Of a DNA stretch of 30,293 bases, positions 1 to 24,022 are shown one piece after another. This DNA is from a virus. The stretch's first letter is position 1. Every line of letters begins with the position of its first letter. Where the stretch lies: positions 1 to 30,293 of the IMG/VR virus record IMGVR_UViG_3300021559_000070, one strand, 5' to 3'. The notes below the pieces were generated by a model that was not told the origin of the DNA, did not search any database, and saw only the letters and a program-made list of their open reading frames with translations. A program made the translations under genes and the position numbers.

Positions 1-3000
1 AGCCCGTTATGAATCCCTGCGGCCCGAACAAACGGGACTCGATTGCTCGGTTGAGTCCGCCGATGAGCGGGAGCCGGGAAGCAAGCGATTCATGGCCGAC
101 AGCGTTTCCCTCTCCGAGATAGTCGCTGTGTCCGGGTCTCGTGCTGCTTACCACGACGCCATCCTGAATCGCCTTCATCTGCTTGTCGGTCAAGTTGTAG
201 TAGTCGATGGCTTCCGGCATACGGATGGCATTGCGGAAGTCTTTGCCGATCTTGACCGGAGACATGCCCGCTTCGAGAGCGCGTGTCGCCACCGTGTTCC
301 AGTGGAACGGACTTATGGAGAGCAGCAAGGACTTGGCTCCGCTCGAAACCTTGAGCACGCCGCGAACGAAGGCGGACTTGGGCGCACTGGAATCCAAGGC
401 GTCAAGAAGATGCGGAGCGATCTCCGGGTGAACATACACAGGAACCCTGTACATCGGCTGTCCGGTGCGGGGGTCGTTGGGGATGCCAGCCTCGCCCTGC
501 CGAATGACAGCTTCGCCGGGAAGGGAGTTCATATCGGGATGCGGGACTAAGGCGTTAGGCGGCTGAGGCTCGACGCCCACAGGTCGGTTGACACGCAAAC
601 CGGAGTCCCGGTAATCGCTGAATTTCCAGTTGTATGCTTTTTGGGGAGTCGGGATTGCACGACGCCCGCTGAGCGGATTATTCGGCGGACCTAAGCTGCT
701 GCCGGGGGCTTCCCCGGAAACTTGTTGTGAAACTCCGGGTAGAACTGGACGTACATCCGCACGTCGGCTTCGGTCGGCGGCAGCCCGTACTTCTCGCTGT
801 ACCGCGTCTTGAAGCTCTCGACCTCTTGCGGTGTCGGAGCCTGCACGGGTTTCTTGTCCATTTGCTTTTCTTGTGTACTCATCTAATCTCTCCTTATTAT
901 ACGCCTTTTCCGGCGAGTTCCCTACGCGCTCGTAGACCTTCTCGTAGTCACGTCCCCACTCGCTGTTGTCGTAAAGATGTGCTTCGTCCGCCAAGTCCTT
1001 GAGATCGAAGAATGCCTTGGCCGCTCCCCTGTGAGTGCTTTCGATCTTCTCGTGCGGAGTTTTGCGTCCACGGCTCTCCTCGAATGGAGAGTTCTCGAAA
1101 CGATCCTGCTCCCATACGTGTGCGATGTCCGTGGGAGTGTTCACGAAACGGAGTTCGACCTTGTACCCACGGGCTTTCAGGTCTCGAATCATTGCAGCGT
1201 CGTCTCCGCCGCTCGTGGTCGAGTCGATGACTATGTTCTTGCGCTGCTCTGCCGCTCGCTTCTGGATGTCCTGCGAAATGTCCGCTGCTTCTCGATGCGT
1301 CAAGCGGGCAGCGTTTTGCGGGTCGGTCTTTTGCCATTCCCGGTATTCCGGCAGCCGTGCCCGGACTTTATCGGTCTCGATGGCGACAGCGCCTCTGTCG
1401 AGTTCCAAGTTGCGAATCATGCGGGACTTCCCGCTGGATGTCCCCCCGCCAAAAATAACGGCGACGGGCTGCTGGTCTGCGGGAACGGGTTGCGCTGTGT
1501 CGAGGAACTCTTTCTTGATGCGTTCACGCAATGCGATACGCTCTTCATACTGCGGCGTACCGGGCTTGTAGGCTTCGGCTGTCTGTTGCCCCGGCTCAAT
1601 CTTCGAGGCGTCGAACTTTTCCGCGCCTTCGGGCAATGGGGTGGTCTTGCCCTTCGGAGCCTCAAGCTGAGCAGGCTCATGCGGAATAAAATCGGGGCGA
1701 GCGTCAGTGTATCCCGCTGGCGTGGCTGGCTCGGGAGTTGGAGCCTTCGCATTCTGAGCCGGAGCCTGCTGCTGAGTGGGAGCGGGGACTTCGTAGATGC
1801 GTCCCTTCTTGAGCAGGTCGTTAAACGTGCCCTTCTGCCTCAAAATCTGAATATCAGCGGGAGTCAACGGCGTGTCACGAGGCACTCCCACGTAGCCGCC
1901 GCTGACAGCCATCGGACTGCCTTCGTTCATATTGCCCTGAGCAAGAGATTCGCCAAGGTTGTTACGGGCAATCATGTTGTTAGCCCGCTCCACGTAATCG
2001 CTGACCAGCTTGACGGCATCCTTGGTCTTGTAGCTGATTCCGTTCGCTTCGCCTTCGGCGTGCGTCGGGTAGATGCGCTTCTTGAGGAAGTCCCGTTCGC
2101 CGTCTGCGCCTGTCTTGTTGATAGGCTCGCCTGTTACCGGGTCTACGTCCTCGAAGTCCGGACGGTGTGGGACATAGTTGTCTCGTCCGCCGTCAGGCGA
2201 CAGCAAGTTTTGAGCACGCAGCCGTGCTTTCCATGCGTCCAAGATTCCCCGCAGACGGTCACGCAGAGACATCTCTTTGTCGGTGAGGTTTTGCGCCGCT
2301 TGGTATCCGGGCTTGTGCTCGTCAGCCGCCGCCGTTTCCCACTGGCGCAATTGAGAGGCATTGCCGTCCGCTTCGATATTGTTGGAGATCGCTTCACGCC
2401 GCACAGGGTCGGTGACAGCCTTGACGCCTTGGTCATGCAATTGGCGAGCTTGTCCGCTTCCGACTTGGTTCTCCGCCTGATAGTCATGCACGGCATCCGT
2501 GTATTGAGTGTTTGCGAGCGCCTTACCCTTCGGAGAGTTGACACGATATTCGTTGATGCCACTCTCGATACCGCGAGTCGCAAGTCCAGCCGCTAGGGAG
2601 CCGAGCACAAGGTCTGTGCCGTCGCGCTCCATCTTGTCCAGCAATTCTTTTTTCTTGCCGGGGTCTTTCTCGGCGTTGAAGTCGTTCCAGTCCCTCTCGA
2701 ACTGCGGCACGGCTTTGGTTCCCACGTCGTATCCGAACTTGGACAAGAATGCGAGATCGACGCCAATCTTGCCGATACGCACGAGTCCCGCCGCACGGGT
2801 GGCGGAGATGCCCGCCTTAGTGAGCAATGATGCTGCGGCGCTGCTTCCCATCGAAGCGATGGCGAGACCCAAGTTGAGCGGGTTGAGTTGACCTGTAATC
2901 CAATCTTCCGCCTCGCCTTCAATTGGTCCCGCTCCCTTGCGATGGAAGGTGCCAAGCAGCGGGACGTTGGCGGCGTTCTTTGCCGTGTCCCACGCACCTT

Positions 3001-3349
3001 TGCCAGCCAATACCGGAGCACTCGGCGTCGTCTCGATACTGTCCTCGAAACTTGGGGCAAAATTGGGCGTGCCCAAAGAGACTCCGCTGAGAATACTGCC
3101 AACGGCTCCCCGACCTACTTTTTGCCAGTCCTCTTGATTGAAATTCTTGAAGCCCTCGTAGATCGTCGTGAGAAAGCCGCTGCCATCGCTCGGCTTCTGA
3201 TTCGGGTCTTGCGGGATGAAGTCAGGCGTTTGGGCGGACTGCTGCGGCATCGTCGCAGGGATAGCGGGGATGAAGTCGGGAGTCTCCTGAGTCGAAGCAG
3301 GAGGCTGAGCCGGAATAAAATCCGGCGTCTGTGTCTGCTGTTCGGGCAT
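1..3349 (-). CDS. Large virion/ejection-type protein with embedded zeta-toxin-like kinase domain (3' end outside window)
   Basis: One frame is open from the ATG at 3349 to the window edge, at least 1116 codons without a stop. The N-terminus carries three TPDFIP motifs (about residues 8-46), with a fourth PDFIP near 551. Alanine/glycine-rich hydrophobic segments follow at about 130-270, as in membrane-active ejection proteins. A zeta-toxin/PezT-like kinase lies at about 625-800: Walker A GGGTSSGKS (634-642), then ETDKVRARLPEY, a NIVIDSTTS strand, and an arginine-rich segment ending in LYDNS. After it, residues 823-886 have poor codon use where the 63-codon ORF lies in another frame. From about 887 the frame again looks like normal protein (YVHPEIAPHLL, SPFHWN). 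It is the last gene of the late series, four bases after the preceding stop, in the position of T7 gp16. The kinase assignment is strong; the ejection role is inferred from position and size. Confidence 0.8.
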   Translation of the reverse strand, partial: MPEQQTQTPDFIPAQPPASTQETPDFIPAIPATMPQQSAQTPDFIPQDPNQKPSDGSGFLTTIYEGFKNFNQEDWQKVGRGAVGSILSGVSLGTPNFAPSFEDSIETTPSAPVLAGKGAWDTAKNAANVPLLGTFHRKGAGPIEGEAEDWITGQLNPLNLGLAIASMGSSAAASLLTKAGISATRAAGLVRIGKIGVDLAFLSKFGYDVGTKAVPQFERDWNDFNAEKDPGKKKELLDKMERDGTDLVLGSLAAGLATRGIESGINEYRVNSPKGKALANTQYTDAVHDYQAENQVGSGQARQLHDQGVKAVTDPVRREAISNNIEADGNASQLRQWETAAADEHKPGYQAAQNLTDKEMSLRDRLRGILDAWKARLRAQNLLSPDGGRDNYVPHRPDFEDVDPVTGEPINKTGADGERDFLKKRIYPTHAEGEANGISYKTKDAVKLVSDYVERANNMIARNNLGESLAQGNMNEGSPMAVSGGYVGVPRDTPLTPADIQILRQKGTFNDLLKKGRIYEVPAPTQQQAPAQNAKAPTPEPATPAGYTDARPDFIPHEPAQLEAPKGKTTPLPEGAEKFDASKIEPGQQTAEAYKPGTPQYEERIALRERIKKEFLDTAQPVPADQQPVAVIFGGGTSSGKSRMIRNLELDRGAVAIETDKVRARLPEYREWQKTDPQNAARLTHREAADISQDIQKRAAEQRKNIVIDSTTSGGDDAAMIRDLKARGYKVELRFVNTPTDIAHVWEQDRFENSPFEESRGRKTPHEKIESTHRGAAKAFFDLKDLADEAHLYDNSEWGRDYEKVYERVGNSPEKAYNKERLDEYTRKANGQETRAGSDTARGRELQDAVQREVRAAADRSRRADVRPVLPGVSQQVSGEAPGSSLGPPNNPLSGRRAIPTPQKAYNWKFSDYRDSGLRVNRPVGVEPQPPNALVPHPDMNSLPGEAVIRQGEAGIPNDPRTGQPMYRVPVYVHPEIAPHLLDALDSSAPKSAFVRGVLKVSSGAKSLLLSISPFHWNTVATRALEAGMSPVKIGKDFRNAIRMPEAIDYYNLTDKQMKAIQDGVVVSSTRPGHSDYLGEGNAVGHESLASRLPLIGGLNRAIESRLFGPQGFITG
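691..882 (-). CDS. 63-residue ORF nested out of frame in the large virion gene
   Basis: An ATG at 882 is preceded by AAGGAG at ideal spacing and, in its own frame, by a TAG codon directly before the ATG. It runs 63 codons to a TAG at 691-693. Third positions are strongly G/C here, whereas the overlapping large frame uses AGA, TTA, CTA, CGA and GTA codons rare elsewhere in this genome, so this is the frame with coding character. The protein is charged and probably helical (YSEKYGLPPTEADVRMYVQF) with a proline/alanine-rich end. No family is recognised. It starts right after the zeta-like kinase domain. Alternatives are a true overlapping gene, perhaps a partner or inhibitor of the kinase, or part of one long protein reached through two compensating indels. 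Confidence 0.6.
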   Translation of the reverse strand: MSTQEKQMDKKPVQAPTPQEVESFKTRYSEKYGLPPTEADVRMYVQFYPEFHNKFPGKPPAAA

Positions 3350-3353
3350 TCAA

Positions 3354-4823
3354 TTAGTCCGTGACGGTTGTTTCAGGGTTGAACGGTTCGGGAGCCGCAG
3401 GCTTGTACCATCCCGGTCCCTTTGCGCCGTTCTGGAATACGTAGTCCGAAGGAACATTCTGCGGACGAGGGGGCGCTGCTGCGGGAGGAGGAGTGTTTGC
3501 CGCTGGCTTGTCGCCGGGTTTCACATTCTTGTCCACCCACGACGGGGTGCCCAAGGTGGAGATTTCTTTGGCGTACATATCACGCTGCTGCTTCAAGAAG
3601 TCAACGCTCGCCTTGTCCTGCAAATCTTCGGGCTTCTGCAATTCCTTTTCGAGTCCCGTCTGCGCCATGTTGAATCGCTTGCTGGCATCTCCGAGCAGGG
3701 CTTCCTTGTCGCCTTCGCCGAGCTTCGAGTAGTCGCCGCCGTTTTCGTTGAGCTTCTTGCGTGCGCCCTTCACGGTGCCATCTTCCTTGTATTCTTCGAG
3801 GTCTTTCTTGAGATCAAGCGAGGATTTTCCTGCGACGGCGAGATAGTGCTTGGTCTTGGCGACTTGCTCTTGAGCAGCGAGTGCGCCCATCGTGTCGGTG
3901 TAAATCTTTTGCGGCTTCCCCGTTGCGTCCGTGATGTCATGCCACTTCGGAGCCTCGTAGGGCGTCTCCATGATTGCCCACTTGCCCGTTTCGGGATTCC
4001 GCATCAAGCGGGTTTTCATATCCGGGTGAGCGGCTGCATCGAAGTTACTGATAGCGAAGTCCCGTGCGTCTCCAAGGTGGTCGAACTCCGGTGACTCGGC
4101 TCCGTTCACGACAAGGCGCTTTCCGCCGTGGGACTGCAAGTCATTCCATTGGTCGGCATAAGTCTGCAAGTCTGCGGCGTGCTGCTTGAGGGAGTTGTAG
4201 TCGCCCTCTTTGATGGCTTGGTCGAGCAAGGTAGACCGCTTCTCGAACTCCACACCCTTGCGAACGCTTTCCGCCTGCTGGCGTGCGTCCTCTCGCAAGC
4301 GAAGATCGTAATCACGGTCGCCCGTGGTCGATTCCCGCTGCTCACGTTGCTTCGCAAGGTCGATGGTCTGCTGCTTTTCTTGGTTCTCGACGCCCTGCTG
4401 CTTGAGTGCATTGGCACGTTCGGTCTGCTGCTCACGCTGCTTAATTGCTGCTTCGGCTCCGACACCCAAACCGCTCAAGATCGGCGCTCCGGGTTGCCGG
4501 GGCGTGCGAGCGGCTGCGGCAAGTCCAGCGAGACCGCCTGCGAGGGCGGACTTCAATGCGCTACCTGCGGTTCCATCGGTGCCTGCGAATGCGTGAATGA
4601 TGCCCTCGGCAATCTTGGAGTGGAGCGGTACTGGCGCAGTCGGCTTGACGGGCTGTGCTGCGGCTCCGCCGAGTCCAGAGTTAGCTTCGACGCCGGACGG
4701 TGTTCCGCTAATCAGCGGAGCCGTTGGCTCGATAGATGATTCCGGTGGTACGGATGGTCCGCTCCCCGCGCCCGCCATCCATGCTTCTGCGGGTGAGGGT
4801 GCTGCGTTATCTGTTTCAGGCAT
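3354..4823 (-). CDS. Helical internal virion protein, probable ejection protein (T7 gp15-like position)
   Basis: This 489-residue protein has a proline/alanine-rich N-terminus, then an alanine/glycine helix-prone segment at about 85-125 (SALAGGLAGLAAAA). A long charged, glutamine-rich coiled-coil region follows at about 125-215, then a mixed middle domain (YEAPKWHDITDATGKPQK), another helical stretch at about 330-415, and a proline-rich tail (PPPAAAPPRP). There is no enzyme motif. It lies between a helical 124-residue protein, whose end it overlaps by eight bases, and the giant virion gene that starts four bases after its stop. Low complexity, helical content and position match the middle internal core protein of podoviruses, but I see no diagnostic motif, so the role is inference. 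Confidence 0.75.
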   Translation of the reverse strand: MPETDNAAPSPAEAWMAGAGSGPSVPPESSIEPTAPLISGTPSGVEANSGLGGAAAQPVKPTAPVPLHSKIAEGIIHAFAGTDGTAGSALKSALAGGLAGLAAAARTPRQPGAPILSGLGVGAEAAIKQREQQTERANALKQQGVENQEKQQTIDLAKQREQRESTTGDRDYDLRLREDARQQAESVRKGVEFEKRSTLLDQAIKEGDYNSLKQHAADLQTYADQWNDLQSHGGKRLVVNGAESPEFDHLGDARDFAISNFDAAAHPDMKTRLMRNPETGKWAIMETPYEAPKWHDITDATGKPQKIYTDTMGALAAQEQVAKTKHYLAVAGKSSLDLKKDLEEYKEDGTVKGARKKLNENGGDYSKLGEGDKEALLGDASKRFNMAQTGLEKELQKPEDLQDKASVDFLKQQRDMYAKEISTLGTPSWVDKNVKPGDKPAANTPPPAAAPPRPQNVPSDYVFQNGAKGPGWYKPAAPEPFNPETTVTD

Positions 4824-5190
4824 TCGTGTACTCCAAAAAGAAACTCAATTCCGTCAGTGCGCCTACGCTGCGGTCGTCCAATGACCGCCGAACAAAATCA
4901 ATCGCCCCCGCTATAGCGAACTCATTCCCGTGCCCGTAAAACGCCAAGGTCTCGCTCACGGTAGATCGCCCGTATCGCTCGCATTGCTTCCTCAGCGTGT
5001 CGATGAGCGACTTGTAGCCCGCTTGATGACAACTGAAAATCCGGTAGCAATCGTCAGTCGCATTGCCAAGGTGCTCCAAAGTTTTCGCCCGAAGCAAACC
5101 GGGATTCCGCAGGCGATACGCCTCACTCTCAGGGTTCGCATAGTCGTTCAAGTTTGCGAGCGCATCCGCCAATGCTTCGAGCCGCTTCAT
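4816..5190 (-). CDS. Hypothetical helical protein, 124 residues
   Basis: This soluble, helix-rich protein has no signal peptide or membrane segment. It begins MKRLEALADALANLNDYANP and ends SFFLEYTNA, with several cysteines and histidines in the middle (DCYRIFSCHQAGY) that do not form a regular metal site. Its ATG overlaps the previous stop as TGATG, so translation is probably coupled to the beta-rich protein upstream. The downstream gene begins inside its last codons. It sits among virion proteins just before the two largest internal proteins. A minor structural or chaperone role is possible, but I recognise no family. Confidence 0.7.
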   Translation of the reverse strand: MKRLEALADALANLNDYANPESEAYRLRNPGLLRAKTLEHLGNATDDCYRIFSCHQAGYKSLIDTLRKQCERYGRSTVSETLAFYGHGNEFAIAGAIDFVRRSLDDRSVGALTELSFFLEYTNA

Positions 5191-5852
5191 CAGGTTCCGC
5201 AGCCCATGAGCATGAGGGAATTGGGGACTCCTCCTGCTCTTTGTTTGAAAGCGACCATGATCCCTTCATCGCCAGTATTGATAGCCCACTGTAATGACCC
5301 CGTGTTCGACCCCGCCGCGCTGGACAGCAGGTCGCCCGCACCGAGCAACACGTTGCTCTGGTTTGTCCTCGCCGTGAAGCCGCTTCCCACCGTATAGTTC
5401 TGACCGGGAGAATTGTTCCCCGAACACAAAATTAGGAGTTCGCCAGCCGCAACAGGGGTGAGGGACAAGTTTATGGTTCCGTTGAAACCATTGATGGTTG
5501 ATGTCGAAGTGTCGAACGGGGAACCGGAGTTGCCGCTGTATTCCAGCAATATCAGGCCAGACAGTACTGCGGACGTAATCGTGAGTGTTACCGTGTTTGC
5601 GCCGCTGGACTTAGCAATGGCGTAAAAGCAGCCGAGCGTAAAAGTACCGACAGACGTGCTTGTGACGAATGGTCCTACTTGCGTCCAAGTGTTCGCTTGG
5701 GTGTCGGCGATGCTGGTGAATAGAGCGGCAGCGCCATTCCAATCAGTGAAAACGACAAGCAAATCGCCAGCCGACACATTAGACGAATAGGCAGCGGCAT
5801 TCGTGGTGCTGTTGCTTTCGTGCTCTCTCGCTTGTACGAAAGTGAATGACAT
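5190..5852 (-). CDS. Beta-sandwich structural protein, fibre or decoration type
   Basis: The start at 5852 is chosen because its ATG overlaps the previous TAA as TAATG; the longer open frame upstream has poor composition. The 220 residues are rich in Ser, Thr, Gly, Asn and Ala and carry a recurring phage-fibre beta module: a N..TTNAAAYSSNVSAGDLLVV opening, a DTQANTWTQVG hairpin, a YAIAKSSGANTVTLTI strand pair and a LILLEYSG strand (about residues 10-107). A glycine-rich second half follows. The tail-fibre gene at 8720-10174 has two related modules. This suggests a surface-exposed virion protein. No catalytic residues are apparent. Confidence 0.75.
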   Translation of the reverse strand: MSFTFVQAREHESNSTTNAAAYSSNVSAGDLLVVFTDWNGAAALFTSIADTQANTWTQVGPFVTSTSVGTFTLGCFYAIAKSSGANTVTLTITSAVLSGLILLEYSGNSGSPFDTSTSTINGFNGTINLSLTPVAAGELLILCSGNNSPGQNYTVGSGFTARTNQSNVLLGAGDLLSSAAGSNTGSLQWAINTGDEGIMVAFKQRAGGVPNSLMLMGCGT

Positions 5853-6061
5853 TAGCGCCGCCCGCGCAAGCCCATGCTGCGCACAGTCCGCTCGCAGAGC
5901 ACAGGGGCGGATTCGCACGGGACAATGCGAAGAGGCGTCGGCTCGACGATGGGAGCCGGAGGAATTTCTTGGACAGGAATCCTCGGCCAATAGCGCCATG
6001 CCGCAAGCGCCAGCAGCACGGGGACGATTTCGACGGGCGGAATGAGCCAAGGGCTGAGCAT
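5852..6061 (-). CDS. Small membrane-anchored protein, 69 residues
   Basis: Start and stop are both of the TAATG type shared with neighbours, which supports this small ORF as real. Residues about 5-25 (WLIPPVEIVPVLLALAAWRY) form one hydrophobic segment, followed by a proline-rich stretch (PRIPVQEIPPAPIVEPTP), two cysteines and a basic C-terminus. The layout of one N-terminal membrane segment plus a proline-rich tail fits a small phage membrane protein and could be a lysis accessory protein such as a spanin component. No specific family is recognised and no lysis enzyme lies nearby. Confidence 0.6.
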   Translation of the reverse strand: MLSPWLIPPVEIVPVLLALAAWRYWPRIPVQEIPPAPIVEPTPLRIVPCESAPVLCERTVRSMGLRGRR

Positions 6062-6522
6062 TAGACTCCCGCCTGTGCCGTCGCAATGAAGTCCACGTTA
6101 ACGTCCACGGTCACGGTGTTGATGCTGAGCGCCGCAGTCCAATTTCTCGCTGCGACGGCTTGAGGAAGCGCATTGGCAAAAGGCACGACGATGCCGCCGT
6201 TCGCAGCGAGGTCGTAAATTTTCCTGTTGCTGGTGCCGTCGTTGATGGTCACGGTCACGGCTGTAGCAGACTGGTTGGTGATCTGGAATCCTGTGATGTC
6301 GTTGAAAATTCCCGCTGCGCCTGCGGTGACGATAGTCGCCGCCGCCGTGGAATTGATGATGGTCGTGACTTGCGACCCTATGGTGACGGTGGCGGGGACG
6401 GCGACATTGACGAGCAGGTTGCCATTGGCGTCCATCTGGAGCGATGCCCCTTGTCCGTTCGGCACGACTCCGCCGACAACGGTGGGCGCTCCGACGAGCA
6501 TGGATGTGAGTGGCCCGTTCAT
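6061..6522 (-). CDS. Beta-rich virion protein, decoration or fibre type
   Basis: This 153-residue protein is rich in Val, Thr, Ala and Asn. Central strands (FQITNQSATAVTVTINDGT) are followed by NRKIYDLAANGGIVVPF and a valine-rich end (VTVDVNVDFIATAQAGV). This strand pattern, TVTINDGT followed by a glycine turn and VPF, is typical of small phage surface proteins with a jelly-roll or Ig-like fold. It lies between the MCG-type internal protein, whose TAA directly precedes its ATG, and the small membrane protein, whose ATG overlaps its TAA. The exact role is unknown. Confidence 0.7.
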   Translation of the reverse strand: MNGPLTSMLVGAPTVVGGVVPNGQGASLQMDANGNLLVNVAVPATVTIGSQVTTIINSTAAATIVTAGAAGIFNDITGFQITNQSATAVTVTINDGTSNRKIYDLAANGGIVVPFANALPQAVAARNWTAALSINTVTVDVNVDFIATAQAGV

Positions 6523-7149
6523 TTAGTGCCCCGGCTCTGGCTTGAACAGCGAAGGATTCCCCAATGCCGCTCCGCCGAGTCCGCCTACAAGTCCGGCCAC
6601 ATCGCCCATCCATGCGTTGTCCTCGCTCTGAATCTGCGACTGCTCGCCGAATGCGCTTTGATTGGCTCCAACCGCCGTGCTCGCTATGGCATTGGGGTTG
6701 TAAGCCGCCGCCGTGGTCTCAAGTCCGCCAGTGGCTTCCTCAAAGTTCTTGTGTCCAAGGGCATAATCCGCTTGTTCGATCTGGTTCTCCTCGCCGCTGA
6801 GTTGCTGTGCGCCTTCGCTGGCGATCTCGCCTTGTACCTGCGTGTCGGCTCCGCTTGGCGCATACGTATTTCCGCCCGCACCCGCACGACCCGTACCGAT
6901 GACTGTCGCTGCGTTCTTGTAATTCGCCGCTGTCGTGTTGATGGCGTTTCCAGTGATCGCCGCTTTCTCGGCGGGACTCATGCCTTCTTGGCTTGGTCCG
7001 GCTTCCGCGATAGGCGTGAGAATGCTGGTCAAGTTTCCGAGAATCGGAGACTGCGCTCCGAAGTTTTGAGCATAGTTGGCGCTGAGCAAGCTGGAGAGGC
7101 TTTGCGATTGTCCCGAAAGGGAGGTTTGAGCCGCTGATGGTCCGCACAT
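6523..7149 (-). CDS. Internal virion (ejection) protein, T7 gp14-like
   Basis: This 208-residue protein is rich in Ala, Gly, Ser, Gln and Asn and begins MCGPSAAQ. A short protein with a cysteine at position 2 followed by low-complexity helix-prone sequence is characteristic of podoviral gp14-type internal proteins; T7 gp14 also begins with MC. Glutamine/alanine-rich stretches fill the middle, and a glycine-rich hydrophobic segment (VAGLVGGLGGAALG) lies near the C-terminus at about 183-197. Its start overlaps the stop of the GNAT-like gene as TAATG. Its place just after a gp13-like protein and before larger helical proteins supports an ejection role. Assigned on composition and order, not on a motif. 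Confidence 0.65.
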   Translation of the reverse strand: MCGPSAAQTSLSGQSQSLSSLLSANYAQNFGAQSPILGNLTSILTPIAEAGPSQEGMSPAEKAAITGNAINTTAANYKNAATVIGTGRAGAGGNTYAPSGADTQVQGEIASEGAQQLSGEENQIEQADYALGHKNFEEATGGLETTAAAYNPNAIASTAVGANQSAFGEQSQIQSEDNAWMGDVAGLVGGLGGAALGNPSLFKPEPGH

Positions 7150-17907: not shown

Positions 17908-18942
17908 TTATTGAATCGCCGGGATGGAATCGCAGACGCGCACACGCTGCGTGTTCGTCCCGACAACCGGAGGTCCAGTGATGGTCTGGTGGAAGATGTA
18001 GCCTGCCCATGCGCCGATAGTTCCCGTGGGATCGAAAGCGCTGCGTGCGGCATCCTTGGTCACGAAGCACTCGATGTCATGGAAGTCGCCGCCGTCCATG
18101 TCGGTGTCACCCGGCACAGGGAGCCAGAAGCCGCGAGCGGCTTCCTGTCCTGCGAGGTAGGTGCGGAACCCGGTCAAGCCCGTGCTTTGGAAGTTGGCGG
18201 TCTTGGTCACGAAAGGCGTTTGATAGCCCGTGACGCCCGTGGTCTGGAAGCGAACAGGGGTAAGCTGGTCGCCTGCGGCGATCTTCTCGAACTCTGCGGC
18301 TCGCTTTGGGTCGTACTTCGCCCAGTCAATGAGCGAGGCGTTCTGCCCCTGCCCGTTGAGAAGGTCGTTCACAACGTTCGAGGAAATGGCCATGCAGTAT
18401 TCGCTGTTCTTGCACGGCAGCACGCCGATAGCGACAAGCTGCTCCTTCATGGTACGGAGAGCAATGAGGCTCATCGTGAAGGGGGATGTGAGCAGCGAAC
18501 TTGCGTTCACCGCACCGTCCACGCCGATGAGGGAGTCGAAGAACGCGCTGTACAGTTCGCTGAGGGACTGTCCGGCGCGGTAGCTCATCTCGACTGCGGA
18601 GTTGCCGACTTGATCGTCAATTGCAGCCGCCACGTTGAAGCGGGAAAAGTTGGTGTAGTCCGACCATTCTGATAGCTGATAGCTGGACTGGTTCTGAGGG
18701 ACGAAAACCGGAGAGCCGATTGCGCCGTCCGTCACGGAGTTGGTGTTGCCGTCGAGCGTGCTGTACTGGAACTGACGCCCGTTGATGCCAGCGCCGAGCG
18801 GCTGCGCCTTCTTGACGACAAGCTCGAAAAATGCGTTGGTTTGTCCTTTGAGGTTCGGGACAAGTTCGGTGACGTAGTAGATCGCTTGCGCGGTCAAGCT
18901 CGTCCCGACGTTACTGATGGATGGATTCGGTCCACTGCCCAT
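17908..18942 (-). CDS. Major capsid protein
   Basis: This 344-residue protein lies in the expected order portal, small gene, scaffold, capsid, with a strong AAAGGA ribosome site. Features in keeping with HK97-fold capsids are a long N-terminal arm region (LTAQAIYYVTELVPNLKGQ), an extended QFQYSTLDGNTNSVTDGAIGS loop, a spine-like helix (AIDDQVGNSAVEMSYRAG), an insertion containing IALRTMKEQLVAIG, and a C-terminal beta-rich part. There is no motif unique to one family, so identification comes from size, gene order and general pattern. It is probably the most abundant virion protein. Confidence 0.8.
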   Translation of the reverse strand: MGSGPNPSISNVGTSLTAQAIYYVTELVPNLKGQTNAFFELVVKKAQPLGAGINGRQFQYSTLDGNTNSVTDGAIGSPVFVPQNQSSYQLSEWSDYTNFSRFNVAAAIDDQVGNSAVEMSYRAGQSLSELYSAFFDSLIGVDGAVNASSLLTSPFTMSLIALRTMKEQLVAIGVLPCKNSEYCMAISSNVVNDLLNGQGQNASLIDWAKYDPKRAAEFEKIAAGDQLTPVRFQTTGVTGYQTPFVTKTANFQSTGLTGFRTYLAGQEAARGFWLPVPGDTDMDGGDFHDIECFVTKDAARSAFDPTGTIGAWAGYIFHQTITGPPVVGTNTQRVRVCDSIPAIQ

Positions 18943-20126: not shown

Positions 20127-22202
20127 TTATAACTGCGTGTCAGAGCCGAAAGGCTCCGCCAAGCCGGATGTGTCGGCGTCCATAGCGTGCTCGATGGTCG
20201 TGCGGGTGACTTCCCCGCCTGCCTTGCTCAACTGTTTTTCCTGCTCTTCCTTCACGGCGTTCTCGAATTTCTGGTTTTCCATGTCCTTCGCTGCCTTCGC
20301 CTTCTGAGCGTTGATCGCGGAGGGCAACTGTGCGTCCGCCTTCTGCTGCTCTTGCGGCGTCATCGGGACAACGAAGTCCTGTGCATACTTCCAGCCTGCG
20401 AAACTGGCGAAGTTCTTGAAGGCATTCGCCGCCTTGAACTTGAAACCTTCGATGTTGAGCATCGTCACGAAAGTTGGGTTGTTCATTAGCTGGATGAGGA
20501 ACGGGAAGAACTGCGCCATTTCCTTCTTGGGACCGAGCTTTGCGCCCGCGAGCACTTCGTATTCAAGCTCCGCAGATCGGAACTGGATGTGATCTACGTC
20601 GAATTGCTTGCCCATTTCCTTGCTGAGAACATCACGGAGAACACTGGACGGCAGACGGTCGTTGTTGAGTTCGTCCATCTGCTGCAACCAAGGGATGAAA
20701 ATTTGCCGCACGATGCGTCCGATGGGACCGTCGAGGCGGGATGCGTTCGCCTGCATGATGCCCTGAGCACCGGAGCCGCTCCGTGCGCCCGTCGTCTGGA
20801 TGCCGGGAGCGCCCGCGCCCATAGAAAATTGCTGGTTTGCTCCGACCGTTTCCTTGGCTTCCGCTTGCTGCTGGATGAGCCATGCCATTGCCGCTGCGTC
20901 CTGCGGAGGGAACTCCAAAAATTTGAACGCCTTGTCCACGTCGCCTTCAACGTCGATGATTCCGCCCTGCGTCCACACGAGGTCTTGCCCCGGCGTGTTG
21001 AAACCCTGTGACCGGATGGCTGTGGGCTGCAAGCCATAGTCGAGGCGACTGAGGCTCAAGTCCGTGATGCCCTGAGCTACAAGCTGATTGCTTCCAGCTA
21101 ATACGCCGATGCCCTGACCGTCGAAACAATCGGGGATCGGACGCCAGCAAGCACTGTAGAACGGGATTTTCTTGTAAGGATTCGCCTCATTGCGGATGAG
21201 GATGTTGTCGTCGCCGTGACGCAGCACGACGATTACGAAATTGTTGCTCCAGTATTCGAGTAGTTCGAGACCGTTTTGCAGTGGGTCTGCGGAGTCTTTG
21301 TAGTTGCGGGGAAGCGCAGTCTGAATCCATCCCCGCATGGATTCGGGGAGCGTGACGGCGATGTTGTCGCCATCGGGGGTAAACCGCTCACGCATGTAAA
21401 AATTCTGGAGTTCCGCTTCTGACGGGATTGTGTAGCCCTCATAGCCTCGTAGCTGATCCAAGTCCTCGTAGGTGGCGTAATCCCTGTAGACAACATCTTT
21501 CGCCTTGCGAATGTCCCCGACCCGGCAACCCCGGTTGACGATGACGCAGCGACGGTCGCAATACTTGATCCAAGGACGGGAGATGAGCTTTTCTTCGTAC
21601 TCGATGTCGAACGCATCGGACTCCTCGGAGTGAATCTTGTGAACGATGCCGCTGACGGCGTTCCGGATTTCCTGCGGCTCCTTGCGGCGCTTGTACTTCT
21701 TGGTTTTTTCGGTGCGCTCCGTCCAGCCCCACTTCATAACCATCGTGCCGATGAGCGCACCCTGTAGCACGGCGAGTTCGCACTCTTCCTCGAACTGCAT
21801 GTCGCTTAGCTGATAGGCGAAGAGCGCGGTCTTGGCGTCCACCATGTCTTGCGTTGTGCCGGGACGGGGACGGAGCAAAAACGGGGGAGACTCGTAAAAA
21901 AGTCCGCCCATGATCTTCGGGACGGTCGTATCGCAAAGGTTCGAGACGGTGTAATTGGGGACGTGGGCGCTGGAGTTGCCGCCACCGTCAAAGCAGCTTA
22001 CGGCTGCGGGGGACTGGTAAATCTGATAAGCGGTAGACCATCCTGCGGGCCAATTCTGTTGGTTCATCCACGCATCGCCGTTCGATGTCGCATCGAGGAC
22101 GATCTTTAGAGCGGCTTCGTCGTCGTAGAGGTAAGAGCCGGATTCGTCGTGGCGGAGATTGTTCGGCAGCACTTCGGCTGCGGGCAGCGTGGGTTTCGGC
22201 AT
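20127..22202 (-). CDS. Portal protein
   Basis: This 691-residue protein follows the large terminase. Features typical of portals: an N-terminal clip/wing region with a SSAHVPNYTVSNLCDTTVPK segment, FQ/E-rich helices (LSDMQFEEECELAVLQGALIGT), a long mixed stem region (VIVVLRHGDDNILIRNEANPYKKIPFYS), then GQGIGVLAGSNQLVAQGITDL (about 365-385). The C-terminal part is rich in Gln, Lys and Glu (about 610-660), suited to interior or coiled segments. The protein forms the dodecameric ring through which DNA is packaged and ejected. Length and the GxGxxxxL-NQLVAQ-type segment match podoviral portals. The ribosome site is weak. Confidence 0.85.
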   Translation of the reverse strand: MPKPTLPAAEVLPNNLRHDESGSYLYDDEAALKIVLDATSNGDAWMNQQNWPAGWSTAYQIYQSPAAVSCFDGGGNSSAHVPNYTVSNLCDTTVPKIMGGLFYESPPFLLRPRPGTTQDMVDAKTALFAYQLSDMQFEEECELAVLQGALIGTMVMKWGWTERTEKTKKYKRRKEPQEIRNAVSGIVHKIHSEESDAFDIEYEEKLISRPWIKYCDRRCVIVNRGCRVGDIRKAKDVVYRDYATYEDLDQLRGYEGYTIPSEAELQNFYMRERFTPDGDNIAVTLPESMRGWIQTALPRNYKDSADPLQNGLELLEYWSNNFVIVVLRHGDDNILIRNEANPYKKIPFYSACWRPIPDCFDGQGIGVLAGSNQLVAQGITDLSLSRLDYGLQPTAIRSQGFNTPGQDLVWTQGGIIDVEGDVDKAFKFLEFPPQDAAAMAWLIQQQAEAKETVGANQQFSMGAGAPGIQTTGARSGSGAQGIMQANASRLDGPIGRIVRQIFIPWLQQMDELNNDRLPSSVLRDVLSKEMGKQFDVDHIQFRSAELEYEVLAGAKLGPKKEMAQFFPFLIQLMNNPTFVTMLNIEGFKFKAANAFKNFASFAGWKYAQDFVVPMTPQEQQKADAQLPSAINAQKAKAAKDMENQKFENAVKEEQEKQLSKAGGEVTRTTIEHAMDADTSGLAEPFGSDTQL

Positions 22203-22249: not shown

Positions 22250-24022
22250 CTACTGAGTCAGCCCGAAATTGCGGAAGTCAAAGCGGGAGCGGCGAGGGTT
22301 CGGCTCCGTCCGCATCACGGGGGGAGCGGCGGGGTTGCGGTTGAAAACCATCCGCATGTAAGCCTCTCCCGCCGCTTTTTTCTCGGCGTCCTCTTGCGCT
22401 TTCTTCGCTTCCCCGGCGTCAACTGGCGTGCGAGGCTCTGCGGGGAGAAAGAACTGGAGCATACTCACGGCATCGGGGATGTCGTCCTTGCGTCCCTTGT
22501 TCTTCTTGAGACCCGTGTAGCGAACGAACTGGGCGAAGGTCTCGTCAATCCACGGGCCTTGCACGAAAAACAGCCTGTCCTCGGCGAGCAGGGTTTCCAG
22601 CCCCTTGATGCGGTTCGCCTTGGCGTTGTCCTTGTTGCCGAAGTCTCGGAAGATGATGGGAGTCGGGACTTGCAGTCGGCGGGCGACGCGGGCAATTTCC
22701 CCTTGCAGCAATTCCGTGCCTGCGGATTTTTCCACGAGGATGATCCGGGGGTTGTGCTTCTTCGCAAGGCTTACTATCTGGAATGCGAGTTCGCTGTACT
22801 TCCAGCGCCCGAACACGATTTCCAGTATATGGAGTTCGGCCTTCGACTTGTCGATGCGACCCACGGCTCCGGCGCTGTAGTCGGCTTTGTCCGTGGATGT
22901 CGGTGCCCAGTCCCATGCGATGACGAGATCGCCGTCCTGCGGAGCGGCGGAGTGCTGTTCCAGATGGGAGCGCAGCACATCCTCGTTGAAGTTCACGGCA
23001 TCCACGTCCGGCTGCGGCTCGTTCATTTGCTGGCAGCGGAAGTCCCGCTCGTTCTTGAGGAGCTTCTTGCGAAGCACTTTCCAGTTGAGCTTTTCGGGGA
23101 AGAGCAGATCGACCATGTGCTCTTTCAATTCGCGGAGCGGCAGGTTGGCAAACTCAGGCTTCACCGTCCAAGCCGCACGGCAAAAGTATTTGAGCGGGGC
23201 ATCCTCTTGCGGAATCCGCAGCCGCTCGCCGTAGTAGTCGTCCAGTGCGTACCGGGTGCCGATGTTGATTGCATATCCCCACTCGTCCAACAGGTTGTCT
23301 ACGTTGTCGTACTTGTCCTTGAGCTTCTTGCGAGCTTCCGGCGTTGTGGAGTTGCGGTCAGATACAACGTCGTCGCCGATCTTCAGATCGCAATGCTGAG
23401 AGGCGAGGGTCGCGGTGACGGCATTGACCCAAAGCGAGGGTTCCTTCTGCTCCGTGTGGATGCGGGCGGGGCATTCAAGCGGGGACTCGGATTCTCCGTC
23501 ACGCTTGCCGATGATGTATTCGGGGAAAAGCTGCTGGAGCTTCGTGCGGGGAGCGCCTTCCGGCTGGTAGAAATACTTTTTGATCTGCTGCAAGAAAAGC
23601 ACGGCGTTGTCATACTCGCCCGTGACGATGAAAATCCGGATGTCCGGGCAGTTGAGCAGCCAGCGAACGCAATTGCAGCCGTTGATTGTGCTTTTGAAAG
23701 CGCCACGGGGATCGAGCAGCAAGCCTTCTTTGAAGTCGGGGTCTTGGCGTGCGATGGCATTCTGCAATTCTTCAAGCGTGTAGCCGTCGTGGTACACGCC
23801 ATCGAAGTTGAGCTTGCCGAAAAAGTCGCAGACCGGGCGGTGAACACGCTCGATGACTCGTGTCCAGCCGAGGATGCTTACGGTGAGGAAGAAAAGGTCT
23901 TTGCGGCAGCGGTCGCGGAGATTGAGCCATTGCTCGAAGGTGAGGCCGCTCTGCGAGCCGCTGTGAATCGCCCGGAGCTTCTCAAGGCTACGGCATTCTG
24001 ACTTGTGATAGGGAACGGGCAA
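22250..24022 (-). CDS. terL: Terminase large subunit
   Basis: This 590-residue protein is the packaging ATPase and nuclease. The ATPase part has a variant Walker A, DPRGAFKST (104-112), and a Walker B/DE-like segment KIGDDVV (214-220). The nuclease part (RNase H-like) has an aspartate in AWDWAP (about 369-373), ILVEKSAGTE (428-437) and a final KDDIPDA (512-518), typical catalytic acidic residues. A TTG start at 24022 is used here because AGGA lies just before it and there is no ATG nearby. It overlaps the end of the preceding 50-codon ORF by 35 bases. No small terminase subunit is recognised in the window. Confidence 0.9.
   Translation of the reverse strand: MPVPYHKSECRSLEKLRAIHSGSQSGLTFEQWLNLRDRCRKDLFFLTVSILGWTRVIERVHRPVCDFFGKLNFDGVYHDGYTLEELQNAIARQDPDFKEGLLLDPRGAFKSTINGCNCVRWLLNCPDIRIFIVTGEYDNAVLFLQQIKKYFYQPEGAPRTKLQQLFPEYIIGKRDGESESPLECPARIHTEQKEPSLWVNAVTATLASQHCDLKIGDDVVSDRNSTTPEARKKLKDKYDNVDNLLDEWGYAINIGTRYALDDYYGERLRIPQEDAPLKYFCRAAWTVKPEFANLPLRELKEHMVDLLFPEKLNWKVLRKKLLKNERDFRCQQMNEPQPDVDAVNFNEDVLRSHLEQHSAAPQDGDLVIAWDWAPTSTDKADYSAGAVGRIDKSKAELHILEIVFGRWKYSELAFQIVSLAKKHNPRIILVEKSAGTELLQGEIARVARRLQVPTPIIFRDFGNKDNAKANRIKGLETLLAEDRLFFVQGPWIDETFAQFVRYTGLKKNKGRKDDIPDAVSMLQFFLPAEPRTPVDAGEAKKAQEDAEKKAAGEAYMRMVFNRNPAAPPVMRTEPNPRRSRFDFRNFGLTQ

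What the first reader, a model, noticed from the sequence alone, without database searches (positions are those of the whole stretch)
940..1480. Zeta-toxin-like kinase domain inside a large ejection-type virion protein
In the frame open from 3349, residues about 625-800 have the full zeta/PezT signature: a Walker A GGGTSSGKS, an ETDK..LPEY catalytic-acid segment, a NIVIDST strand, arginine-rich segment and LYDNS end. Zeta kinases phosphorylate UDP-N-acetylglucosamine and other substrates and usually act as toxins with an epsilon antitoxin. Here the domain sits inside a protein that, by position and size, is likely packaged in the virion and ejected with the DNA. Sequence on either side looks like one continuous virion protein, so the kinase seems inserted. 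It might modify the host at the moment of infection. Multi-domain 'polyvalent' phage proteins are known; this particular combination looks unusual.
Basis: partly seen in the sequence, partly recalled or inferred. Interest (0 to 1): 0.85.

Follow-up and report, generated by a model that had tools for sequence, protein, structure and literature searches.

The report
Zeta kinase in phage ejection protein
A soil phage with a predicted short tail carries, inside a large protein that is probably injected into the bacterium with its DNA, a complete zeta-toxin-type kinase domain in a slot where its closest relative carries a different segment; enzymes riding on phage particle proteins are known, but this kind of carrier looks new.

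Summary
Window 2..3349 (-) is one open frame of 1116 aa, cut off by the window's end. Residues 616-794 match Pfam Zeta_toxin (118 bits, E 5e-34). An AlphaFold model of the module (pLDDT 87) has zeta, PezT and AvrRxo1 as its nearest solved folds (Z about 18-19). The residues essential in toxin zeta are kept (K641, D660, R750, R762; E116 is replaced by Asp709).

The 38-kb relative L002 has the same gene: residues 1-551 and 883-1116 match at about 65-70% identity. In place of window residues 552-882 it has an unrelated 232-aa segment and no zeta. The kinase is therefore a module in a variable slot. Synteny with Tunturiibacter phage Tunturi_3, a podovirus by microscopy, and three relatives puts the gene last in a trio of likely ejection proteins, just before an endolysin. 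In two relatives the middle protein carries a transglycosylase domain. No epsilon antitoxin was found.

Zeta domains in virion proteins are not new: a 2017 paper reports MuF-zeta fusions, and I found 134 zeta loci in IMG/VR. What looks new is the carrier, a podovirus ejection-type protein with swappable cargo. Packaging, ejection and substrate remain inferred.

The parts
2..3349 (-). gene of the large ejection-type protein, first 1116 aa; its 3' end lies beyond the window (the relative L002 has 372 more residues)
1697..3349 (-). N-terminal scaffold, residues 1-551, conserved in L002
704..1696 (-). variable slot / cargo module, residues 552-882; L002 has an unrelated 232-aa segment here
968..1504 (-). 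zeta-toxin-family kinase domain (Pfam PF06414), residues 616-794
1424..1450 (-). Walker A GGGTSSGKS, residues 634-642; K641 aligns with K46 of zeta
1343..1378 (-). ETDKVRARLPEY, residues 658-669; D660 aligns with catalytic D67 of zeta (D66 of PezT)
1217..1237 (-). NIVIDST strand, residues 705-711; D709 stands where zeta has the Mg-binding E116
1055..1105 (-). arginines R750 and R762, aligned with R158 and R171 of zeta
2..703 (-). C-terminal scaffold, residues 883-1116, conserved in L002
3212..3325 (-). three PDFIPxxP repeats near the N-terminus (residues 9, 24, 42)
1682..1696 (-). fourth PDFIP repeat, at the first residue of the module (552)
3354..4823 (-). neighbouring protein, 489 aa, equivalent by position to Tunturi_3 gp24; two relatives carry an SLT transglycosylase domain in this protein
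6523..7149 (-). 208-aa protein, homologue of Tunturi_3 gp23, first of the trio
17908..18942 (-). homologue of Tunturi_3 gp6, annotated major head protein
20127..22202 (-). portal protein
22250..24022 (-). terminase large subunit

Best explanation
The gene encodes the last of three ejection (internal virion) proteins of a podovirus, used as a scaffold with an exchangeable enzyme cargo. In this phage the cargo is an active zeta-family kinase. The protein would be made late, packaged in the head and ejected with the DNA at the next infection. In the new host the kinase would use ATP to phosphorylate a small-molecule substrate, most likely a nucleotide sugar such as UDP-N-acetylglucosamine, shortly after DNA entry, slowing cell-wall synthesis or host metabolism. 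No antitoxin is needed, because the producing cell is about to lyse. Shown here: the complete kinase domain, its conserved catalytic residues, its place in a slot whose content differs in a 65-70% identical relative, and the ejection-trio synteny. Inferred: packaging, ejection, catalytic activity, substrate and purpose.
For: Zeta_toxin 118 bits. Model of pLDDT 86.6 with best folds zeta 1gvn/3q8x (Z 19), AvrRxo1 (18.5) and PezT (18.4), well above the next group at Z 14. K641 and D660 are invariant, R750 in 53/53 and R762 in 52/53 aligned zetas; these match K46, D67, R158 and R171, which are essential in zeta (alignment; PMC6356619). L002 homologue: flanks aligned at residues 4-551 and 883-1116, no zeta in the whole 38-kb record. 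Synteny of terminase, portal, head protein and further structural genes with Tunturi_3, a podovirus by microscopy (PMC11924767). gp24 equivalents in two relatives have SLT domains and match PHROG 'internal virion protein with endolysin domain'. The relative L129 also has a module in its gp25 that is absent from L131, and that module recurs in a zeta-bearing polyvalent protein, L126 (100.7 bits). No epsilon antitoxin.
Against: The flanks resemble no characterised ejection protein, and the gp25 proteins of the wider group are related to this one only by position. The gp24 equivalents in the window and L002 lack SLT. There are no proteomic data. The zeta E100 contact is Gln here and E116 is Asp, so the substrate may differ. 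Only one record shows this arrangement, and the gene is incomplete.
Confidence: 0.6

Rival explanations
1. The kinase is a delivered effector, but its target is not the cell wall: it phosphorylates a nucleotide, NAD-type cofactor or nucleic-acid end, for example to blunt nucleotide-based host defence or repair cleaved RNA or DNA.
For: AvrRxo1 is as close in fold as zeta (Z 18.3-18.5 against 19), and polynucleotide kinases follow at Z 14. The sugar contact E100 of zeta is Gln693 here (alignment; PMC6356619). Zeta domains also occur in haloarchaeal viruses, whose hosts do not make murein (own knowledge). Phage zetas keep an H-x-E motif (H685 in 51/53 and E687 in 53/53 of the relatives aligned) that was not found at those positions in the PezT alignment.
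Against: The best sequence family is Zeta_toxin, and the full catalytic set of UDP-GlcNAc kinases is present except E116 to Asp and E100 to Gln.
Confidence: 0.25
2. The kinase acts in the producing cell late in infection, before packaging, or in virion assembly; being part of a virion protein is incidental.
For: No packaging evidence exists. Stand-alone phage zetas of about 300 aa also occur outside virion proteins, for example DAC19_77.
Against: An enzyme meant for the producing cell would not need fusion to a structural protein; the recurrent fusion with MuF and portal proteins favours delivery.
Confidence: 0.08
3. The domain is a catalytically dead structural filler.
For: The slot is filled by an unrelated segment in L002, so the particular sequence is not essential to the scaffold.
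Against: All catalytic positions are conserved at 23-37% overall identity to its relatives, which is not expected of a decayed domain.
Confidence: 0.04
4. Assembly artefact: a metagenomic chimera joined a zeta gene to a virion gene.
For: One record only; the second record of the same virus (L008, identical portal) does not reach this gene.
Against: The frame is open through both junctions, both flanks belong to the same gene in L002 in the right order and spacing, and GC and third-position GC of module and flanks are alike (0.58 against 0.58-0.60).
Confidence: 0.03

Closest known systems
Polyvalent phage proteins with MuF-zeta fusions (Iyer et al. 2017, PMC5512222; e.g. cyanophage PSS2 gp30, IMG/VR loci L054, L082, L103)
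   Same: Zeta-type kinase domain within a virion-structure protein, predicted to enter the host with the DNA
   Different: There the carrier is a MuF head protein or portal; here no MuF or portal domain is found in the protein, and the carrier is an ejection-type protein of a podovirus-like phage
Zeta / PezT toxins of epsilon-zeta and PezAT toxin-antitoxin systems (PDB 1gvn, 3q8x, 2p5t)
   Same: Fold and catalytic residues K, D, R, R
   Different: No antitoxin found; part of a >1100-aa protein; E116 is Asp and E100 is Gln; phage-type extensions on both sides
AvrRxo1 (PDB 4z8q-4z8v)
   Same: Equally close predicted fold (Z 18.5); a kinase delivered into another cell
   Different: Delivered by type III secretion, with its own partner protein; residue-level comparison not done
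T7-type internal virion proteins (gp14/gp15/gp16)
   Same: Three consecutive genes late in the structural block; a lytic transglycosylase domain in one of them in two relatives
   Different: No detectable sequence homology; in T7 gp16 the transglycosylase is in the largest protein, here it is in the middle gene of the relatives
Tunturiibacter phage Tunturi_3 gp25 (PP885686)
   Same: Same position in a syntenic gene block, and N-terminal short duplicated motifs
   Different: No sequence homology detected and no zeta domain
Zeta proteins of conjugative plasmids (Mycetohabitans, Burkholderia)
   Same: About 35% identity over the kinase domain
   Different: 480-500 aa proteins with zeta at the N-terminus, next to a small upstream gene

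Membership tests
Zeta toxin kinase domain family (PF06414) | Profile match above the curated cut-off | tested here: met
   118 bits against 22.3
Zeta toxin kinase domain family (PF06414) | Zeta fold | tested here: met
   Predicted module, pLDDT 86.6; 1gvn_B Z 19.2, rmsd 4.6 over 248 residues
Zeta toxin kinase domain family (PF06414) | Catalytic residues K46, D67, R158, R171 (PMC6356619) | tested here: met
   K641, D660, R750 and R762 by the PezT alignment, conserved in 52-53 of 53 relatives
Zeta toxin kinase domain family (PF06414) | E116 (essential in zeta) | tested here: inconclusive
   Asp709 at that place, an acidic substitution shared by 51 of 53 aligned phage zetas
Zeta toxin kinase domain family (PF06414) | UDP-GlcNAc phosphorylation | not testable with these tools
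   Needs biochemistry; contact E100 is Gln693
Epsilon-zeta / PezAT toxin-antitoxin system | Cognate antitoxin (epsilon) gene | tested here: inconclusive
   No PF08998 match in the window, L002's record or L008's record, but that family was over its cut-off in none of the 14 control genomes and the records are fragments; PezA-type antitoxins were not searched
Polyvalent phage protein | Enzymatic domain fused to a virion/ejected protein encoded among virion genes | tested here: met
   Zeta domain within a conserved protein in the structural block with terminase, portal and head genes
Polyvalent phage protein | Two or more domains of disparate activity | tested here: inconclusive
   Only zeta is recognised; the scaffold's fold is unknown
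Podovirus ejection (internal virion) protein | Position in an ejection-protein trio of a podovirus | tested here: met
   gp23 homology, gp24/gp25 position, gp26 homologue after it in L002; Tunturi_3 is a podovirus (PMC11924767)
Podovirus ejection (internal virion) protein | Sequence homology to a characterised ejection protein | tested here: inconclusive
   None found by Pfam, PHROGs, NCBIfam or PDB sequences; only two homologues were available
Podovirus ejection (internal virion) protein | Present in virions and ejected | not testable with these tools
   Needs virion proteomics and infection assays

The most novel reading that the evidence does not exclude
In this podovirus group the last ejection protein is a general delivery scaffold: a fixed N- and C-terminal frame with an exchangeable cargo slot (zeta kinase here, another segment in L002, and another module in the distant gp25 of L129), with a short motif (PDFIP) repeated at the N-terminus and at the start of the cargo, perhaps a packaging or processing tag.
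Probability: 0.35. Interest if true: 0.72.

Novelty: new variant of a known kind. Interest (0 to 1): 0.52.

Why it matters
Zeta kinases are known mainly as plasmid-maintenance and chromosomal toxins. If this protein is ejected, a kinase acts in the host at the moment of DNA entry, when few phage proteins are present. The pair window/L002 gives a natural with/without comparison in an otherwise closely similar protein. It extends polyvalent proteins from MuF and portal carriers to podovirus ejection proteins, and suggests looking at ejection proteins for hidden effectors.

Tried and rejected
Full-length AlphaFold model with only two sequences: mean pLDDT 29.9, useless, so the scaffold fold is untested. 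Profile comparison of the window/L002 scaffold with gp25 of the wider group: no similarity (probability 0.2), so homology is not claimed. Profile of A1 against 22 further records with related portals: nothing, and the zeta family: nothing in the same 22, although most of them are short fragments. Searches for more homologues of the scaffold in viral contigs with five different queries returned only L002; genome contigs gave none; INPHARED none. None of the 80 kept zeta loci has a neighbour homologous to this phage's structural genes, so no second zeta-bearing member of this group was seen. gp23 against PDB: only chance hits. PADLOC: none. Tree of zetas: the window sits on a long branch whose placement is weak (69/72), so no donor can be named; plasmid zetas and soil-phage zetas L049-L051 and L126 are the nearest. 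A plain 'recent insertion' was rejected because L002 has other sequence at the same place and base composition shows no contrast.

Full report
What is there. The finding lies in a minus-strand frame, window 3349..2, that starts with ATG and stays open for 1116 codons until the window ends. The window is a linear IMG/VR virus record of 30,293 bases, so the gene is incomplete; the relative L002 has 372 further residues. Residues 616-794 match Pfam Zeta_toxin with 118 bits (E 4.8e-34, cut-off 22.3). PezT is the only convincing sequence match among solved structures.

Kinase domain. The alignment to PezT puts K641 on K45, D660 on D66, R750 on R157 and R762 on R170 of PezT. In toxin zeta the equivalent K46, D67, R158 and R171 are needed for toxicity and ATP hydrolysis, as is E116, while E100 and T128 are partly dispensable (PMC6356619). 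E116 is represented by Asp709, an aspartate in 51 of 53 aligned phage relatives; E100 aligns with Gln693. K641, D660, E687 and R750 are invariant and R762 is present in 52 of 53. An AlphaFold2 model of residues 560-905 with 53 sequences has mean pLDDT 86.6. Foldseek ranks PezT and zeta first (E 4e-10 to 6e-10), and the second aligner gives zeta Z 19.2, AvrRxo1 18.5 and PezT 18.4, then polynucleotide kinases at 14. The domain is therefore a probable active kinase; the substrate is open.

Module in a slot. One close relative was found, L002 (IMGVR_UViG_3300044837_000269, 38 kb). Its 1417-aa protein aligns with window residues 4-551 and 883-1116 (697.7 and 307.5 bits), at about 64% identity over the N-terminal alignment and 70% over the C-terminal one. 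Between these, the window has 331 residues with the kinase, and L002 has 232 residues without detectable similarity to it; a zeta search of L002's whole record finds nothing, and Pfam finds nothing above its cut-off in the L002 segment. GC and third-position GC do not differ between module and flanks. The site is thus variable; which state is ancestral is unknown.

What the carrier is. Ten or more window genes match Tunturiibacter phage Tunturi_3 in the same order: terminase, portal, gp4, head protein gp6, gp10, gp12, gp13, gp19, gp22 and gp23. Tunturi_3 is a podovirus by electron microscopy (PMC11924767). After gp23 come gp24 and gp25, then gp26, annotated endolysin. The order gp22-gp23-gp24-gp25-gp26 recurs in L129, L130 and L131, and in L002 a gp26 homologue overlaps the end of the large gene. 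In L129 and L131 the gp24 equivalents carry an SLT transglycosylase domain and match PHROG 'internal virion protein with endolysin domain'. By position the window's protein is the gp25 equivalent, the last of a trio of likely ejection proteins. This rests on synteny: the scaffold has no detectable homology to known ejection proteins or to gp25 of the wider group, and the full-length model was useless.

Cargo elsewhere in the group. L129's gp25 shares its C-terminal 570 residues with L131's but carries extra sequence before them, and residues 480-680 of it match a region of L126, a 1817-aa protein that also holds a zeta kinase (100.7 bits). This fits the idea that the gp25 position carries exchangeable effector-like modules, but the function of that module is unknown.

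How common is zeta in phage proteins? A scan of IMG/VR gave 134 zeta relatives, 80 kept. Their proteins range from about 230 aa to 2003 aa. Of 15 large ones scanned, 7 carry a MuF domain, one of these also a portal domain, and 3 carry ADP-ribosyltransferase domains. Cultured examples are PSS2 gp30, HCTV-1 gp109, HVTV-1 gp115, Phrappuccino gp57 and DAC19_77. Iyer et al. 2017 already described zeta kinases fused to MuF in phages and suggested weakening of the cell wall or help with injection (PMC5512222). For haloarchaeal viruses the role is stated as unknown (PMC4284463). None of the 80 loci has structural genes like this phage's.

Mechanism. I think it most likely that the protein is packaged and ejected, and that the kinase then phosphorylates a nucleotide sugar or similar metabolite in the new host (0.6). 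The rival targets are nucleotides, NAD-type cofactors or nucleic-acid ends (0.25). No epsilon antitoxin was found; that search is weak, because its family was over its cut-off in none of the control genomes. A late, packaged enzyme would not need one.

Verdict. It is a new variant of a known kind: a zeta-bearing polyvalent protein with a podovirus ejection-type carrier and a demonstrated exchange of the module. Interest 0.52.

Noticed in passing
window 3325-3212 and 1696-1682 (-): PDFIP(x)xP motif three times near the N-terminus and once at the first residue of the kinase module (4 DNA matches against 0.12 expected). L002 has three DF[IV]P copies at its N-terminus and PDFIPHE inside its own module.
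   Followed up: partly
L003, L129, L130, L131 gp25 N-termini: The gp25 equivalents each carry a different short duplicated motif near the N-terminus (Tunturi_3 LDMSTA, L131 PAGFTVDST, L130 DQYSTPLP, L129 weaker); the best self-match reaches or exceeds shuffles in 0-1 of 200 cases. This might be a packaging or processing tag.
   Followed up: partly
L050 7500-13151, L126 5874-11324: Polyvalent proteins of 1817-1884 aa in which a linker like KYSEDQARDDHGRFASED precedes each of several domains (zeta, cytidylyltransferase-like, pyrophosphatase and others).
   Followed up: no
L129 gp25 residues 480-680; L126 residues 64-259: Unnamed domain (motif GxWKDGAENS) shared by an ejection-type protein and a zeta-bearing polyvalent protein; no Pfam match in L129.
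   Followed up: partly
L003 26674-29886 (Tunturi_3 gp25): Contains HELTHVWQ, resembling a zinc metalloprotease HExxH motif, without a Pfam match; possibly another cargo.
   Followed up: no
window 977-2596 (+) and 22394-24001 (+): Long open frames of 539 and 535 aa antisense to the large gene and to the terminase; probably by-products of codon usage.
   Followed up: no
L103 4758-9005: One phage protein with a MuF domain, several zeta matches and two ADP-ribosyltransferase stretches.
   Followed up: no
L046 2644-2907, L047 2692-2955: Plasmid zeta genes are preceded by a conserved-size gene of 87 aa, a candidate antitoxin or partner.
   Followed up: no
window 5190-6086 (-); L002 3783-4466: Proteins sharing the start MS[FL]TFVQ and a Gly/Thr/Asn-rich make-up, in different places of the structural block of the two phages.
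   Followed up: no
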